64,000 nt of DNA from Scheffersomyces stipitis CBS 6054 (lineage: Eukaryota; Ascomycota; Pichiomycetes; Serinales; Debaryomycetaceae), in NCBI RefSeq assembly GCF_000209165.1, contig NC_009048.1, positions 620,001 through 684,000 on the forward strand, written 5' to 3'. This document shows, in pieces, positions 55,057-62,200 of this stretch. Position 1 is the stretch's first letter, and every line of letters begins with the position of its first letter. The position numbers and the translations under genes were made by a program. A model generated the notes under the pieces. It did not search any database. It had not been told where the DNA came from and was given only the letters and a program-made list of their open reading frames with translations.

Positions 55057-56541
55057 TTAATCCAATAATCGGCTAGAGATGATTTCGTAAGTCATTCTGC
55101 GTCTGATAACCTTCATATCTTTTTGAGAGTAGGTTAGAGACTTAGATAATGCAATGTATTTAGCAGCCGTACAAGTGAAAACTCCACAGTCATAACCATT
55201 CGCTTGTTGGGGGGTTTCCATATGAGGATACAATTCATAGTCTATTACTGGCACATTCAATCTTGAAGCTTCTTGTTTCATATAGTCCTTCAAGTTGAGC
55301 ATGGCATTCTCATTTCCAGAACTAGAGAGCGAATCATAGTACCTGATAGACTTGTCAACGTTATCTATGACAGCTAGAGCCCAATGAGTATTCAAGATAT
55401 TGATGGGTACCAAAATCTTTTTCTTTTCAAACAAATTGATTTTCTTCCTCTTGGCCCATCTAGCTACTCCCAGGTATCCTTTTGTTTCCAAAGTTGTGTA
55501 AAAATGAGTGGTCCATCCAAATACCTTTTGGTTTTGAGATTCCATGATGAGATTGAGGTAATAGTCTATTATGTTATCGTTGAGCCATTTACCATCTCTA
55601 AGGGTCTTGAGATCGTGAAAATACAACTCGATCTGGTAATTGGTAGCGAAAGTGTCTGTTCTGCTACTTTGCCATACTGCCTGTACTTTCTGCAACTCTT
55701 GGGGTCCAAGTGGGGTTATCTTGGAGAGAGAATCAAGTCTACTTTTCTCGATAATTTTCTGATTGTCTATGCGTTTCCGGTCGTATTCGGCCGAAATCTT
55801 GTCCACATAGTAATGTGGTATTAGTTTATCCACAATAGAATAGTTTGTGATAGAAACAGGCAGCGAAGGAATGTAGTAGTTGAGAATAGATTTCTTGTAC
55901 TCAGATATCTGGGGTTCCTGTTTGATGAACTGACTGTAGTCACTTAGTTTGATTCGTTCCCGTTTCACACCTTCAAAATTTGGTTCTGGAGTATACTCTT
56001 TCTGGTACGAAGAAGATTTGAGATAGTTGTTGGAAAGCGACAAGCTTGTTCCATACTGGAGATTACGTGGATCTTCTGACACACCATTTCTGTTAAATCG
56101 CGATTCAGAATATTTCTGGAGTACGTTGACAGAATTGTTGTCACTGCTTATTTGGGAAATATCAGAGGCAATCATGCTGTTGTTCTTAGGTTGTCGGAGT
56201 AAGTGATAGTCATTCGTGATCTTGTGGACGCTGATGATTTGCACACTTTCCTCATCATCAAGGTCTAAAGCCATGATGTCTATATCCGAACTTTGGTCCA
56301 ATGGAGGAGTAGTGGCCCGAGGATGCTGTGGCAAATTGCTGCGAATCTTTGTTGAAAAGAATACGTAAATATGGTATATGCTGATTTGTAGGTAGTGGAG
56401 AAGGTTGTGAAGAGAAAAAAACGATGTGGAAGACGACGAACGTGATGCTGGAGGCGTTTCTAGAGTCGGAGGTAAGGACTCTCCCGGAAAAGCATTCCGT
56501 TTGGAGAGCCTGTTCTGCACGAGCAATGGGTTGTCGTCCAT
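55057..56541 (-). CDS. ULP1: ULP1, SUMO-specific cysteine protease
   Basis: 494 residues from ATG at 56539-56541. The C-terminal C48 peptidase domain (about 280-494) has the catalytic triad His386 (THWALAVID), Asp403 (YYDSLSSSG) and Cys452 (GYDCGVF), with oxyanion Gln446 six residues before the Cys, as in S. cerevisiae Ulp1. WLNDNIIDYY and VARWAKRKKINLF are other family blocks. The N-terminal 270 residues are low complexity and would localise the enzyme to nuclear pores. It is shorter than S. cerevisiae Ulp1 (621). Ulp2 is unlikely, since the catalytic domain lies at the extreme C-terminus. Confidence 0.92.
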   Translation of the reverse strand: MDDNPLLVQNRLSKRNAFPGESLPPTLETPPASRSSSSTSFFSLHNLLHYLQISIYHIYVFFSTKIRSNLPQHPRATTPPLDQSSDIDIMALDLDDEESVQIISVHKITNDYHLLRQPKNNSMIASDISQISSDNNSVNVLQKYSESRFNRNGVSEDPRNLQYGTSLSLSNNYLKSSSYQKEYTPEPNFEGVKRERIKLSDYSQFIKQEPQISEYKKSILNYYIPSLPVSITNYSIVDKLIPHYYVDKISAEYDRKRIDNQKIIEKSRLDSLSKITPLGPQELQKVQAVWQSSRTDTFATNYQIELYFHDLKTLRDGKWLNDNIIDYYLNLIMESQNQKVFGWTTHFYTTLETKGYLGVARWAKRKKINLFEKKKILVPINILNTHWALAVIDNVDKSIRYYDSLSSSGNENAMLNLKDYMKQEASRLNVPVIDYELYPHMETPQQANGYDCGVFTCTAAKYIALSKSLTYSQKDMKVIRRRMTYEIISSRLLD

Positions 56542-56869
56542 AGTACTGGTTCCGAAACGATGATTATAGATTAGATGTTCAAGTCTGAAATGTTTAAACG
56601 GCTAATATGGTAATTTGTGTCATGTGACATAAAACACACGCTGAGGATCATGTGATTAGAAAGTGGCACAAATTGATGCATGTGAAGACAGAAATTACGC
56701 AGGATCCTTATTCCTAGGGTTAAACTGGTTACATACTGAGGAACAGAGTGGAGTGGAATCTATTTTAAGTTCTAAGATAAAAGAGAATGACCCCAAAGGT
56801 ATAAATAGTTCACAGAAAAGACCACTTTCAAATTTATGCAAACTTGTCTTTTTATAGGCCAATTTTAAA
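56542..56869. other. Divergent region ULP1 / small unknown gene
   Basis: 328 bp. It contains ATCATGTGAT and ATGTGACAT E-box-like half sites. No ORF of note. Confidence 0.4.
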
Positions 56870-57175
56870 ATGTTACCACCAAGAAGGAACCAGTTTTTCG
56901 AACACAAAGATAGCCTTCTAAGCTTTTGGACGGACAGCAACGGCAAACCCATACCACCTAGGCTACCACCTGGCTTGACTGGTGTTGAGAGATTCCATCT
57001 AAAGCATAGACAGCTACTAAATTATGTAGATGTTTTAGGTGATCAGTATGCAAGAGATTATTTACCAGGAGCATGGGGAGGTGTTAGAGTCCCAAATAGA
57101 CCTTGGTCTAAGTTCTCTGGGAGGAATGTGGTCAGACTAGGGGCTCGAAGGACTGCTACTACAAGTAAGCTATAA
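56870..57175 (+). CDS. Small basic hypothetical protein
   Basis: 101 residues from ATG 56870, preceded in frame by a stop. The composition is Arg- and Pro-rich (KPIPPRLPPGLTGVERFHLKH, then a basic C-terminus RNVVRLGARRTATTSKL), with a DYLPGAWGG motif and no membrane segment. It looks like a small ribosomal or mitochondrial-matrix protein, but I do not recognise it. The first residues are basic yet include Glu and Asp early, so a classical presequence is doubtful. A TTTTTATAG just upstream resembles a 3' splice site, but no branch point was found. Confidence 0.5.
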   Translation: MLPPRRNQFFEHKDSLLSFWTDSNGKPIPPRLPPGLTGVERFHLKHRQLLNYVDVLGDQYARDYLPGAWGGVRVPNRPWSKFSGRNVVRLGARRTATTSKL

Positions 57176-57756
57176 AATGGGATGAAGGATGGAGGATGCG
57201 AGTACGGAACTTGAACCAGGGGTCAGAATGTGGAAAAGTGATCTAAAAATTTCTACAACCTGAAACCAGTATTACAACAATAGATCTTTGAAGATTACCT
57301 AGATGTCATTGCCAATTATAAAAAGAAAAATCTCTATAGTAGGAGAATGATGGTCTTTGGTATGAGATTTCTAGGGCCTGCGGATCCAATTGTTGCCAGG
57401 TTTATTCCTGATAGCGATATGATAATCTAGACTGTTCAGGTTGCAAACGTTTGCAACTCAAATGGCCAGGATCGGCCGCGTTCTTGTTACCCCGGTAATG
57501 GAAGTTATACAGGACCCGCAAAGAGAAATTTGGCATCCATCCATCCAGGCAATACCATACCGGAGAAATTGCCTTGTGTTAATTGCCTTGTGTTACAGTC
57601 TGCTTTCCAGTATCTATTTTATACAGCGACTTCTTCTCATACTTGAATGTAAGAGTATATATTATCCAAAGAAAGTCTGCCTTATACGGATAATTTTAGC
57701 TCTGTATTGCTATCTGATTAGATTAGTTTTTGCATTTAACTGAGAAATCTTCGAAA
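57176..57756. other. Upstream flank of the Gag-like gene
   Basis: 580 bp without ORF or recognisable LTR. It contains a perfect 14-bp tandem duplication AATTGCCTTGTGTT (57567-57594). Confidence 0.5.
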
Positions 57757-58926
57757 ATGTCCAACTCACCCACAAGTCAATTATCGGCTCACACATCTGA
57801 ACGTCCAAATCGAAATGATCCAGTCAGTTCTTCTGCTGCACAAGCCAAGTCTTCATTGAAAAAAACGGCCCAGAAACAGTATGAAGCAAGATTGGACCAA
57901 CAACAATCTCAGATTGATGCTCTTGTGTTAAGAGTGGCAGCCTTGGAGACTAATTGCGGACAAGGATTCTCAATGACAGGCGATGGTTCTTGTGCCATAA
58001 CCAACAGTACTAGTGAGAACTCTCTTGAAAATGACTCAAGAAGTGTGACGAGTTCGACATTTACCTCTACGGACTCTGTCCACTCCAACGGTCCCAGAAC
58101 ATCACGAGATGGACACTCTCTGGGACTATTTGATATTGACACTGAAATCACCGAGATGCAGTTTCAGATTCACGAAGACTGGGCAAAATTACCCAAACTT
58201 GATACGCAAACCGCTCGCCAATGGTTACGTGCCATCTATATATTGAGAAATGACGCCGATTTCGAACAATTACTTAAGACAGAATCCGAAGTCGATTGGG
58301 CCGCTTTGCACTTTACATTCGGATATTTTGGCGAGGACTTAGAATATTATTACGCCGCCTGGAGAGAGCACCTCATTGCACCTTATCGTCATAACTCCCT
58401 AAGAACACTTGGTCAACCAGACAATATCACTGTTGATGTCCTTCTAGATTATTTAACGAATTTTGAAGATAAAGCGAGAAGTTCGGTCATAATCAAAGAG
58501 TTGAACAGACGTAAAACAATTGGAAGTAACCCAGACAGTCAATCGTTTGTCGCAGAATTTTTTGATAGGGACAATGATTACAACGACCGTACAATTAGGT
58601 TTCTAGACGATATGCCTGTTCCTCTAGCTGAAACAGTCAAGCACTACTGCACTCAGAGTGATGAAACAAAACGTCTGATCGCTGTTACAACAGTCCAGTA
58701 TTACTTTCAGGAGTCAATCCGCCTAGCAAGGTTCATGTACCCTAGTGCCGAAGCTTTTGAATCCAAAGTTCAACTTACACCGGGTTACTCGGGTAACTCA
58801 AACTCAATACCCTTTGGTTCGCCTGATTCAAGAATGGATCGTAAACCCAAGAACAAGAGAAGAAACCGTTCCCGTTACTCCAAGAATAAGTCTACATCGA
58901 ACAAAGACGAACTCAATTACTTCTAG
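57757..58926 (+). CDS. Stand-alone retrotransposon Gag-like protein
   Basis: 389 residues from ATG 57757. Order: Ser/Thr-rich N-terminus, a short coiled coil (QQQSQIDALVLRVAALE), then an all-helical region (about 130-340) with the spacing of a retroelement capsid: TARQWLRAI, WAALHFTFGYF, DVLLDYLTNFEDKARS, DMPVPLAETVKHYC and TVQYYFQESIRLARFMYP. The C-terminus is strongly basic (RKPKNKRRNRSRYSKNK) and has no CCHC knuckle. No protease, reverse transcriptase or integrase follows, and no matching LTRs flank it. The frame is intact. It could be a domesticated Gag or a recent solo fragment; an unrelated helical protein remains possible because the capsid call rests on pattern, not a search. Confidence 0.45.
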   Translation: MSNSPTSQLSAHTSERPNRNDPVSSSAAQAKSSLKKTAQKQYEARLDQQQSQIDALVLRVAALETNCGQGFSMTGDGSCAITNSTSENSLENDSRSVTSSTFTSTDSVHSNGPRTSRDGHSLGLFDIDTEITEMQFQIHEDWAKLPKLDTQTARQWLRAIYILRNDADFEQLLKTESEVDWAALHFTFGYFGEDLEYYYAAWREHLIAPYRHNSLRTLGQPDNITVDVLLDYLTNFEDKARSSVIIKELNRRKTIGSNPDSQSFVAEFFDRDNDYNDRTIRFLDDMPVPLAETVKHYCTQSDETKRLIAVTTVQYYFQESIRLARFMYPSAEAFESKVQLTPGYSGNSNSIPFGSPDSRMDRKPKNKRRNRSRYSKNKSTSNKDELNYF

Positions 58927-59788
58927 CAGTTGCAGATCACATGACCGGCTTCACCATGGCAATGGCGGCTGCTGGGAGAAAACAGAGCTGCAATTGCCCA
59001 AAGCGTCTTTATGTCACATCTATAATTATTGCTTGGTTTGAGCCTCTTCCGTGTGCCGGAGTTTTACGAGATTAAGCCATCGCGCCTGCAAATGTAGCCC
59101 ACGTGTGCGCCAACGAGGAGGAAAATGTCGCGCTCGTGGGGTGAAGTATTGGCCCAGTAGGGAGCCATGGGAAGAGCAGCTTAGACAGAAATAGAGAGAT
59201 TTTTCAGGCTGCCAGATGAAATGAGGAAATTACAGGCCACCGATAGCGAATCACGGAAGAGTATCTATCCACGAAATAGTCCAAATATTCTAAATAGTAC
59301 CAAAAATCACCAATTTCACTGTTTCCAGAGTCTGGTGCCATGTGGCTTACCCTGTAGCTCTTAAGATTCTACATACTGTAGAGCATAAGCGACGTAGCAT
59401 CCGGTCCCAGTCCAGTAAGTCTCGCGGCCCGCCTACTTTCTCTCGCTATTATCTGCCCAGTACGGCTATCTCATCGCGCCAAAGCTGTCACTAAATCTGT
59501 CGAGAAGCAGCTGCCTGCGCGACATGCGACATCCTCATTAATTAGGCTTCTACAATAGCACTAATAATAATATTACTACATGGTTCTAATACCACCCTAC
59601 CCAAACAAAGTAATCTGGTGTGGATTCTATTCGTCGATACTGTAGCGACTTTTTTTTCTACTAGCGACTCGTTTCGTAATTGCCGTAACTACAATTGCGT
59701 TTTATTTTCATTCTTCTTCTTTCCCTTGTTGCCCAGCTCCTTTGTTGCAACGCTTCCTTCCTCCCCTCTAGAGTCTGCCCGTCTTACT
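58927..59788. other. VTC2/3-type gene promoter region
   Basis: About 860 bp without ORF; it carries CACGTG at 59100. I searched here for a pol-like frame or LTR related to the Gag-like gene and found none. Confidence 0.55.
59100..59105. promoter_or_regulatory. Pho4-type E-box upstream of the VTC gene
   Basis: GCCCACGTGTGC reads CACGTGGG on the minus strand, the high-affinity Pho4 form and lacking the 5' T that favours Cbf1. It lies about 690 bp before the ATG. VTC genes are classic PHO-regulon members. Confidence 0.6.
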
Positions 59789-62200
59789 ATGTCAATTGAT
59801 CCGCTTGACACCACCTCCACTACCAACAACATCAGTGACGAGACCAGCAGCAAAATGTTATTCGGGACCAAATTGGACCACGAGCTCTACGACCCTTGGA
59901 AGCAGTACTACATCAACTACAACCACCTCAAGAAGTTGTTGAAAGAGGGAGTCATTCTCAAGAACAACTGGACCGATAAGGATGAACAGAACTTTGTTCT
60001 GGCTCTTGACGAGAACTTGGAAAAGGTGTACACCTTCCAGCACCAGAAGTTCGATGAGTTGAACGACCAATTGAACGACTTGCAGTTGCAGACAGAAACC
60101 TCGGGCGCCGACTTCAATGTCGAATCGTTTTCTTCCAAGTTGGACAGAATTTTGGACGAGGCCCAGGAATTGGAACATTTCCAGAGAATTAACTACACCG
60201 GCTTCATCAAAATCGTCAAGAAGCATGACCGTTTGCACTCCAACTACTCTGTTAAGCCTTTGTTGAATGTCAGATTAAAGAGCTTGCCTTTCCACTCCGA
60301 AGATTACAGTCCTTTGTTGTACAAGGTTGGTACTCTCTTCCAGTTCTTGCGTGAAAACTACGACGTCGACCAGGCTTTGTCCAAGTTGTCGTCGTTCAAC
60401 GACTCTGGTTTGAATGCCGAATTCCAGTCATTCAAGTTCTGGATCCACCCTGAAAACTTAATGGAAGTCAAGACCACCATCTTGAGACACTTGCCCGTGT
60501 TGATCTACAACAGTGAAAATGTTTCGCAAATAGATGACGATGATGACGATGACGAAGAAGAAGACGAGGCCATCAACGACCAGACCATCAATGCCTTGTA
60601 CTTTGACAACAACCATTTTGAGTTGTACAACAATAAGTTGACGAAAATCAACAACTCGTCCACTTTACGTATCAAGTGGATTGGCAAGTTGGCCGACAAG
60701 CCAAAAATCGTTATGGAAAAGAAGCAATTCGATTCCAACTCCAACTTTAACGTGGATGACAAGATTACTTTGAAGCAAAAGTACATCAACCAGTTCGTCA
60801 TCAACAAGGAGCTTCCCAGCAAGTTAAAGAAGATCAATGACGAACTGTCGCTCAACCACATTCTTGGCTTCATCAACGAATTCAACTTGCAGCCTATCTT
60901 GAGAACAACCTATAAACGTACCGCTTTCCAAATTCCTGGCGACGACAAGATTAGAATCGTCATCGATACCAACTTGAACTTCATTAGAGAAGACTCGTTT
61001 GACTCTCAATTGCCAATTAGAGACCCTTCGAGCTGGCACAGAACCGATATCGACTCCAACACTGCTAATCCACAGCAATTCTTACGTAAGGGTGAATACA
61101 TCAAGTTCCCATACTCTACCATGGAAATCAAGATTAAGAAGTCTGCTGCTAAGAACTTCAAGAAGTTGAACTGGATCAATGAATTGATCAACTCTTCCAA
61201 TTTGATTAAGGAAATTCCAAACTTTTCCAAGTTCATCCACGGTGTAGCTTCATTGTTCTTAGAAGACGACAAGTTGGATAACATCCCTCTTTGGTTCAAT
61301 GAATTGGAGAATGACATCTCGTCTACTTCACACTACGTGCCAAAGTCCAAGAGAACATTGCAACAGCAAGAAAATGACATCCAGAACTTGACCGACGCCG
61401 ACAACTTGTCCAAGTTCAAGTCGATGATTCTCAAGAACCAGAGTTCAAGCTTCCAGCCTAGATCGTCTTCCTTCTCTGGTTCCATGTTGTTGAACATCAA
61501 CAAGGACGAAGAAGAATCAATTGACCACAGTGTTGGACCCTCTTCTTCTCACGTGCAAACGATTGAAGAAGAAGCTCCTCAATCAGGTTTAACAGATGAT
61601 CAGTCATCCGAATTTGATGATGATGACGACGACGATCTTCCAGGCTCCAGAGCCAATCCAATTTCGAAGATTTTGAACTTGCCAGTTCAATTCTCAAAAT
61701 TGCTTGACGTTGACTCAGAAGACGAAGAGGTAGATCTTCCACTTGGTGTCAGCAAGCCTGAGAGCTGGATCAAGAACGCTGGTCCACTTAAGATTGAACC
61801 CAAGGTCTGGTTGGCTAACGAAAGAACTTTCAACAGGTGGTTGCATGTGACTACTTTGCTCTCGACCTTGACATTTGTCATCTACTCGTCGACTATGAAC
61901 TCTAACTTTGCCGGATTATCCACCATCTTGGCATACTTTTATTTTGCATTAACATTGTTCTCTGGAATCTGGGGTTACTACATTTTCATGAGAAGAAGAA
62001 CAATCATTATGGAAAGATCAGACAAGCATTTGGACAATTCCATCGGACCGCTTATTGTAGCCTTTGGTCTTATCTTGGCGTTAGTTGTCAACTTTGTCTT
62101 TGGCTGGAAGGGGTTGAAGGTTGATCTTGACGATGAGTTCTACGCCAACAACACCGTGCACAGGGCTATCCATGAGTACGTGATCAACTTGGTCAACTAA
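59789..62200 (+). CDS. VTC2/VTC3-type subunit of the vacuolar polyphosphate polymerase
   Basis: 803 residues from ATG 59789; a second in-frame ATG at 59855 (MLFGTKLDHELYDPW) is where S. cerevisiae Vtc2/Vtc3 begin. SPX domain first (YYINYNHLKKLLKEG; Lys cluster KIVKKHDRLHSNY), then the tunnel/CYTH domain (LYFDNNHFELYNNKL; TAFQIPGDDKIRIVIDTN; YSTMEIKIKKSA), a Ser/Asp-rich linker, and a C-terminal DUF202 domain (LANERTFNRWLH) with three membrane helices. The MLFG start and EVKTTILRHLPVL are Vtc2/3-type; Vtc4 (catalytic) starts MKFGEHL. Vtc2/3 are accessory subunits that place the complex in ER or vacuole. Phosphate starvation control is suggested by the Pho4 site. Confidence 0.88.
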   Translation: MSIDPLDTTSTTNNISDETSSKMLFGTKLDHELYDPWKQYYINYNHLKKLLKEGVILKNNWTDKDEQNFVLALDENLEKVYTFQHQKFDELNDQLNDLQLQTETSGADFNVESFSSKLDRILDEAQELEHFQRINYTGFIKIVKKHDRLHSNYSVKPLLNVRLKSLPFHSEDYSPLLYKVGTLFQFLRENYDVDQALSKLSSFNDSGLNAEFQSFKFWIHPENLMEVKTTILRHLPVLIYNSENVSQIDDDDDDDEEEDEAINDQTINALYFDNNHFELYNNKLTKINNSSTLRIKWIGKLADKPKIVMEKKQFDSNSNFNVDDKITLKQKYINQFVINKELPSKLKKINDELSLNHILGFINEFNLQPILRTTYKRTAFQIPGDDKIRIVIDTNLNFIREDSFDSQLPIRDPSSWHRTDIDSNTANPQQFLRKGEYIKFPYSTMEIKIKKSAAKNFKKLNWINELINSSNLIKEIPNFSKFIHGVASLFLEDDKLDNIPLWFNELENDISSTSHYVPKSKRTLQQQENDIQNLTDADNLSKFKSMILKNQSSSFQPRSSSFSGSMLLNINKDEEESIDHSVGPSSSHVQTIEEEAPQSGLTDDQSSEFDDDDDDDLPGSRANPISKILNLPVQFSKLLDVDSEDEEVDLPLGVSKPESWIKNAGPLKIEPKVWLANERTFNRWLHVTTLLSTLTFVIYSSTMNSNFAGLSTILAYFYFALTLFSGIWGYYIFMRRRTIIMERSDKHLDNSIGPLIVAFGLILALVVNFVFGWKGLKVDLDDEFYANNTVHRAIHEYVINLVN

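What the first reader, a model, noticed from the sequence alone, without database searches (positions are those of the whole stretch)
57757..58926. Intact Gag-like gene without pol or LTRs: possible domesticated capsid
The 389-codon frame has a coiled coil, capsid-like helical region and very basic tail, but no CCHC, protease, RT or integrase, and I could not match the two flanks to each other as LTRs. An intact lone gag in a gene-rich arm could be an Arc/PEG10-like exaptation or a restriction factor like the truncated Ty1 Gag. The capsid assignment is by pattern.
Basis: partly seen in the sequence, partly recalled or inferred. Interest (0 to 1): 0.8.

Follow-up and report, generated by a model that had tools for sequence, protein, structure and literature searches.

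The report
Lone Gag left by a yeast retrotransposon
A yeast gene that makes an intact virus-shell-like protein is the surviving front part of an old jumping gene whose replication enzymes are gone; it may be a mere leftover or a kept defence factor, and the sequence alone cannot decide which.

Summary
The 389-codon ORF at 57757-58926 is real and intact. It is a Gag by homology: 31-35% identical over its length to the Gag of six complete Ty1/copia elements in the same genome (about 6.03 kb, gag-TAA-pol, near-identical LTRs, 5-bp target duplications) and to a second lone gag on contig 7. No pol or LTR was found after it. "No LTRs" is wrong: a decayed 5' LTR lies directly upstream (about 57450-57720), preceded by a pol RNase-H remnant and perhaps a second LTR piece. 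The genome looks like Scheffersomyces stipitis. A protein database gave no homologue in other yeasts, though it holds relatives of a neighbouring gene; it may omit transposon genes. An intact frame beside a primer-binding site and TATA box that look decayed hints at selection or a young insertion; it proves neither. Dispersed relics lean towards gag: five gag-only loci, no RT relic seen. The capsid fold could not be tested (pLDDT 38-39). Best reading: an immobile one-LTR gag relic. Closest precedent: DRT2 of S. cerevisiae; restriction is not shown here.

The parts
57757..58926 (+). Intact gag ORF, 389 codons, Ty1/copia type; the only copy of its lineage found in this genome
   Evidence: frame; 7 other gags in the genome at 33-35%; alignment; codon-position identity 0.528/0.604/0.436 to fam1.
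57450..57720 (+). Decayed 5' LTR directly upstream of gag (start approximate); no TATA box at the place where fam1 and fam2 have TATATAA
   Evidence: 68.5%/127 bp to fam1 LTR, E 8e-10; alignment, 71 vs shuffle max 49.6; 37.5 vs shuffle max 24.5; 35.5 vs 19.5 against the C7 LTR; TATA and LTR end. Against: global identity only 49.4%; not returned.
57720..57735 (+). Place of the primer-binding site; of 16 conserved positions the first 7 (AGATTAG) remain, 9 of 16 match in all
   Evidence: AGATTAGAAGTCAAAA is identical in the five element sequences compared (fam1, fam2, fam2b, fam3, fam3b); (count).
57284..57430 (+). 3' end of a pol gene (RNase H), broken, just before the LTR
   Evidence: 77.5%/89 bp to fam2 pol DNA; frame with internal loss; 45.0 vs shuffle max 21.5; against fam1 pol end 24.0 vs 17.0.
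56686..56880 (+). Possible second, older LTR piece with TATAAATA; weaker evidence
   Evidence: 52.6 vs shuffle max 41.8; 24.5 vs 20.5 against fam1 LTR, 26.0 vs 19.0 against C7 LTR; 12.5, not significant, against the window's own 57450 LTR.
58927..59788 (.). Downstream interval in which no pol or 3' LTR was found
   Evidence: nothing significant.

Best explanation
The ORF is the gag gene of a Ty1/copia-type LTR retrotransposon of this CTG-clade yeast, left as a one-LTR, gag-only relic. A member of a lineage distantly related to the active family fam1 inserted between a Ulp1-type SUMO protease gene and a VTC-domain gene. It lost pol and its 3' LTR, and its primer-binding site and promoter then appear to have decayed. 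It cannot move by itself. The order pol-3'-end / LTR / gag suggests a tandem or rearranged copy. The protein probably still folds and self-assembles like an element Gag if it is expressed (inferred). Whether the frame is intact because the insertion is fairly young or because it is kept for a host function cannot be decided here; I put youth or chance ahead of a kept function.
For: Full-length homology to the Gags of complete elements; adjacent LTR remnant; RNase-H remnant next to the LTR; no pol found downstream. Other gag-only relics exist in the same genome, some broken: C1:2001039 with 2 stops, C6:722914 with frameshift and stop. No homologue in other yeasts in the protein database, while the Ulp1 neighbour has 261 proteins at E<=1e-20 among the 7,984 candidates scored. 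Published survey: 10 of 69 transposon loci are shared between two S. stipitis isolates (PMC8546629, passages seen).
Against: The gag frame has no stop or frameshift although the PBS and TATA appear lost. In a neutral simulation P(intact) is 0.29 at 0.01 substitutions per site, 0.08 at 0.02, 0.02 at 0.03 and 0.002 at 0.05 (indel rate assumed at 10% of substitutions). The window branch has omega 0.315 and omega=1 is rejected (delta lnL 15.7), but that branch includes its life as an active element and is saturated.
Confidence: 0.7

Rival explanations
1. Domesticated restriction factor of the DRT2/p22 kind: the lone Gag is expressed, joins the virus-like particles of a related element and poisons their lattice. 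Its likeliest target would be its own lineage (protection against re-invasion), not fam1.
For: Intact frame beside cis elements that look decayed. Dispersed relics lean to gag: 5 gag-only loci against 0 dispersed RT relics seen (18 of 62 RVT_2 matches are dispersed, and I assign all 18 to full elements). The second lone gag C7:635382 has an open frame of 382 codons with branch omega not clearly below 1 (free estimate 2.4; omega=1 fits, omega=0.2 is worse by 4.4 lnL). Precedent DRT2 (PMC10951436).
Against: p18m and Drt2m are highly subfamily-specific (PMC12530519, abstract) and lack the capsid N-terminal domain; this Gag is full length and about 31% identical to fam1. No expression data. Not found in other species. 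Two of the other four dispersed gag-only loci are broken. Omega near 1 on the C7 branch equally fits plain decay.
Confidence: 0.17
2. Remnant of a non-autonomous gag-only element (like plant TR-GAG) that spread with pol supplied by relatives, so that pol was absent from the start.
For: In several gag-only loci similarity ends near the gag stop codon: C7:635382 at the stop; C7:837089 and C1:2001039 within roughly some tens of bases of it.
Against: No 3' LTR found after the window gag, C7:635382, C7:837089, C1:2001039 or C6:722914; C6:722914 ends earlier, about 119-178 bp before the stop; a pol remnant lies beside this copy.
Confidence: 0.08
3. Arc/PEG10-like host gene with a cellular role unrelated to transposon control.
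For: Intact single-copy ORF in a gene-rich stretch.
Against: No homologue in other yeasts in the database (control 89; weak, since transposon-like genes seem under-represented there); LTR still adjacent.
Confidence: 0.03

Closest known systems
Noncentromeric LTR retrotransposons of S. stipitis (Ava, Bea, Caia) and their Lap1-3 proteins (PMC8546629)
   Same: Lap is the second, non-pol ORF of these elements, proposed there to be Gag; our fam1-fam3 have a pol ORF preceded by such an ORF, and this ORF is homologous to the fam1 protein over its length and weakly to that of fam2.
   Different: Here there is no pol and no 3' LTR. I did not match fam1-fam3 to the published names by sequence, and no relation to the fam3 protein was found (E 0.13).
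DRT2 / Ty1' relic 2 of S. cerevisiae (PMC10951436)
   Same: Lone gag-derived ORF left in a decayed Ty1/copia copy bordered by LTR pieces, pol missing.
   Different: DRT2 covers about the p22 region (capsid C-terminal domain) only, is transcribed and restricts Ty1'; this ORF is a full-length Gag with no expression or activity data.
Tca2 of Candida albicans (PMC2194720)
   Same: Element with gag and pol separated by an in-frame stop (that Tca2 belongs to the Ty1/copia group is recalled).
   Different: Tca2 has UGA, fam1 and fam2 have TAA at the junction; the window copy lacks pol.
Plant TR-GAG elements (search listing only)
   Same: Non-autonomous LTR elements with gag (that they lack pol is recalled).
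   Different: TR-GAGs have two LTRs (recalled); only a 5' LTR remnant here.

Membership tests
Ty1/copia Gag | Homology to the protein encoded just upstream of a copia-type pol | tested here: met
   33-35% to fam1 and C7 gags over residues 1-376 to 1-385; fam1 pol carries RVT_2, E 2.2e-75.
Ty1/copia Gag | Capsid fold | tested here: inconclusive
   Single-sequence AF2, pLDDT 38.8 and 38.3; no fold search run on such models; no capsid hit in the PDB by sequence.
Complete LTR retrotransposon | Two LTRs flanking gag, PBS, pol | tested here: not met
   One adjacent decayed LTR, PBS site mostly changed, no pol found downstream.
Domesticated gag gene | Conserved at the same locus across species | tested here: not met
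   No homologue beyond its own cluster; the database holds relatives of the neighbour from other Scheffersomyces. Caveat: fam1 and C7 gags were not found there either, so transposon-like genes may be missing.
Domesticated gag gene | Purifying selection after loss of mobility | tested here: inconclusive
   Branch omega 0.315 mixes mobile and immobile time; ORF survival simulation.
p22/Drt2-type restriction factor | Truncated Gag: capsid C-terminal domain without the N-terminal domain | tested here: not met
   The ORF aligns with fam1 Gag over its whole length.
p22/Drt2-type restriction factor | Expressed and inhibits retrotransposition | not testable with these tools
   Needs RNA-seq and a mobility assay.

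The most novel reading that the evidence does not exclude
S. stipitis keeps a set of gag-only loci from several Ty1/copia lineages as lattice-poisoning guards against re-invasion: this ORF, C7:635382 and C7:837089 are open frames of 389, 382 and 316 codons without pol, while no dispersed RT relic was seen. That would extend the single DRT2 case to a repertoire with full-length Gags.
Probability: 0.1. Interest if true: 0.75.

Novelty: new member of a known kind. Interest (0 to 1): 0.38.

Why it matters
If it is only a relic it is ordinary, though it shows copies of these elements decaying to gag rather than to solo LTRs; the DRT2 authors call degradation of element coding sequence uncommon in S. 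cerevisiae (PMC10951436, Discussion part 1). If it is kept, it would be a second yeast case of Gag turned against retrotransposons, in a species whose related elements look recently active (identical or near-identical LTR pairs), so it can be tested by deletion. It also links a lone gene to a class of proteins that were only hypothesised to be Gags.

Tried and rejected
Pfam Retrotrans_gag search of the genome: nothing, but the control genomes gave nothing either, so uninformative. PDB sequence searches with one sequence and with three alignments: no capsid among the few weak hits. AF2 from a single sequence, full length and residues 120-345: pLDDT 38.8 and 38.3, so no fold search was run. Relatives in viral contigs (2 scans) and genome contigs (1 scan): none. 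I first noted that gag-only loci end exactly at the gag stop as a rule. The alignments support this well only for C7:635382; C7:837089 and C1:2001039 are clear only to within some tens of bases, and C6:722914 ends earlier; so no mechanism is built on it. LTR divergence as a clock: rejected, since LTRs of working families also differ widely (fam2/fam2b 75.8%, fam3/fam3b 67.9%). Window LTR against fam1 LTR aligned globally is only 49.4% identical, as low as a pair with no local similarity (fam1/fam2 51.2%), and it was not returned by the genome DNA searches; the claim of homology rests on local alignments and shuffles. tRNA scan of the window: none found. C6:208804 (30% over 77 aa, E 0.17; E 4e-4) was dropped from the relic count as unverified. 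C1:2301272-2302230 was left out of the five because it is broken and lies next to a cluster of elements that I take to be the centromere; it is the one gag relic with a short pol start after it. Lone gags of family fam3 were not sought (genome search cap reached).

Full report
Observation. The frame 57757-58926(+) is intact: 389 codons from ATG to TAG under table 1 and table 12. It lies between a Ulp1-type protease gene (55057-56541, minus strand; PF02902, E 4.6e-36) and a VTC-domain gene (59789-62200; PF09359, E 1.8e-71). The genome has 15,441,179 bases in 8 contigs, which fits the published 15.4 Mb and eight chromosomes of S. stipitis (PMC8546629, passages). The best match of the Ulp1 neighbour is an S. 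stipitis protein differing at one of 494 residues. I therefore take the organism to be S. stipitis; this is an inference.

What it is. A whole-genome search gave 8 places: the window gene and 7 others at 33-35% identity. Six of the 7 are the gag genes of family fam1: elements of about 6,026 bp, near-identical copies, LTRs of about 267 bp that are 100% alike in five copies and 98.9% over the matched stretch in the sixth, 5-bp repeats on both sides of all six, and gag followed in frame by a 1,391-codon pol, with TAA at the junction in the copy examined. That pol carries RVT_2 with E 2.2e-75; in one of the six copies pol has one TGA. The seventh place is a second lone gag, C7:635382, with an 82% identical LTR before it and no pol found after it. 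The window protein is also weakly related to the Gag of a second family, fam2 (profile comparison E 9e-6); no such relation was found with fam3 (E 0.13). By eye, the positions invariant in the alignment (4 rows, two nearly identical) are denser in residues 125-345 (63 of 221) than in 1-124 (20 of 124).

The flanks. Directly upstream is a decayed LTR. Its best stretch is 68.5% identical over 127 bp to the fam1 LTR, and its score of 37.5 exceeds all 300 first-order shuffles (maximum 24.5). Against this, a global alignment gives only 49.4%, a genome DNA search with this stretch returned only itself, and a search with the contig-7 LTR returned 19 places without it; so the LTR is very worn or belongs to a distant family. 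The 16-base motif AGATTAGAAGTCAAAA after the LTR is identical in the five element sequences compared; the window keeps its first seven bases and matches 9 of 16 in all, and the C7 copy has small changes there. That this motif is the primer-binding site is inferred from its place. A window lineage that used another tRNA primer is not excluded. The TATATAA seen in fam1 and fam2 LTRs is missing at the aligned place. Just before the LTR lies the broken 3' end of a pol gene (77.5% over 89 bp to fam2; shuffle test), and about 0.6-0.8 kb before the LTR a weaker LTR-like piece that is significant against fam1 and C7 LTRs but not against the window's own. Downstream, none of five shuffle tests against pol or LTR was significant; tblastn of pol over the whole window gave nothing below E 1.2, and in a smaller area the best downstream hit was E 0.20 on the minus strand.

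Context in the genome. RVT_2 gives 62 matches (62 of 62 candidates scored). I assign 18 of them to dispersed elements of fam1, fam2, fam2b and fam3, all in frames of 1,391 residues or more except one fam1 copy with a 535-residue frame. The other 44 lie in one cluster per contig, which I take to be the centromeres described in PMC8546629. No dispersed RT relic was seen. Two searches with protease-integrase regions (49 of 49 and 64 of 64 candidates scored) gave one small dispersed pol fragment, C2:1959077, with 4 stops. Against this stand five dispersed gag-only loci: the window, C7:635382, C7:837089 (open, 316 codons from ATG), C1:2001039 (2 stops) and C6:722914 (frameshift and stop). The numbers are small, the searches state that their counts are lower bounds, and pol pieces other than these domains were not sought, so the gag bias is a lead, not a result.

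Selection. In a three-taxon codon model (362 columns) the omegas are 0.353 (fam1), 2.42 (C7:635382) and 0.315 (window). Setting the window branch to 1 costs 15.7 lnL units. Setting C7 to 1 costs 0.12, and to 0.2 costs 4.4. The three-omega model is not significantly better than one omega (lnL -3498.1 against -3500.2). The window branch is long (2.7 substitutions per codon) and includes its mobile past, so it does not prove constraint after pol was lost. For C7:635382 the data fit relaxed evolution. Neutral simulation on the window gag gives P(intact) of 0.29, 0.08, 0.02 and 0.002 at 0.01, 0.02, 0.03 and 0.05 substitutions per site. So either the loss of mobility is fairly recent or the frame was kept.

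Spread. In a database of 5.8 billion proteins the window protein matched only its own cluster (6 member sequences, 12 contigs, longest 302,925 bp), with one sequence and with an alignment. The neighbour Ulp1 found 261 proteins at E<=1e-20 (only the 7,984 candidates sharing most words were scored; 120 listed), among them proteins of S. xylosifermentans, S. coipomensis, S. amazonensis and S. spartinae, so those species' proteins are held. Ancient domestication is therefore unlikely, with a real caveat: the fam1 and C7 gags, though part of the query alignment, were not found in the database either, so transposon-like genes may be left out of it. The S. stipitis Ulp1 entry (locus tag G9P44) lies on a contig of 879,920 bp, longer than any contig counted for the gag cluster. 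In that assembly the gag is thus perhaps absent from this place or not annotated; I could not look.

How it works. Shown: a Gag-homologous intact frame, an adjacent decayed LTR, no pol found after it. Inferred: immobile; if expressed, an RNA-binding (basic tail) shell protein. The known way for such a relic to matter is DRT2 in S. cerevisiae, which restricts Ty1' (PMC10951436: abstract, sections 5 and 6, first part of the Discussion). The p18m and Drt2m factors act through a capsid C-terminal interface that is highly subfamily-specific (PMC12530519, abstract only; PMC8458377, passages). With a full-length Gag about 31% identical to fam1, restriction of fam1 by that route is unlikely; restriction of its own lineage is open. 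I put a kept function of that kind at 0.17.

Novelty. A search for papers holding stipitis, retrotransposon and Tca2 gave none. Searches on S. stipitis with LTR, gag and retrotransposon (20 of 2,964 listed), on gag domestication in yeasts (12 of 150 listed; 15 of 50 listed) and on the names Ava/Bea/Caia (1 of 1) showed no report of this lone gag in titles and abstract starts. PMC8546629 is the one paper found that describes these elements (passages read; its supplements were not available). The ORF is filed as a new member of a known kind: a gag-only relic of an LTR retrotransposon.

Noticed in passing
L023:4083-5531 (contig C7:635082-636530): Second lone gag of the fam1 group: LTR 82% and gag about 59-62% identical to fam1, open for 382 codons, no pol or 3' LTR found, similarity to fam1 ending at the gag stop; an inserted triplet gives an earlier stop.
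   Followed up: yes
L032:4575-5555 (minus), L030:4474-5397 (plus), L031:4406-5508 (minus): Further gag-only loci related to fam2; one open (316 codons), two broken; no pol found after any of the three.
   Followed up: partly
window 56870-57175: A 101-codon ORF with no other copy in its genome, no Pfam hit and no significant PDB hit, starting at the end of the weak LTR-like piece with TATAAATA; origin unknown.
   Followed up: partly
window 57440-57457: An 18-bp perfect palindrome GTTGCAAACGTTTGCAAC between the pol remnant and the LTR.
   Followed up: no
L018, L024, L036, L038: fam1-fam3 may correspond to the published Ava, Bea and Caia elements, whose Lap proteins were only hypothesised to be Gags; names were not matched by sequence.
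   Followed up: no
protein cluster P0002: The gag cluster counts 12 contigs, the longest shorter than the contig bearing the Ulp1 neighbour in the G9P44 S. stipitis annotation, which hints at presence/absence variation between isolates or at missing annotation.
   Followed up: no
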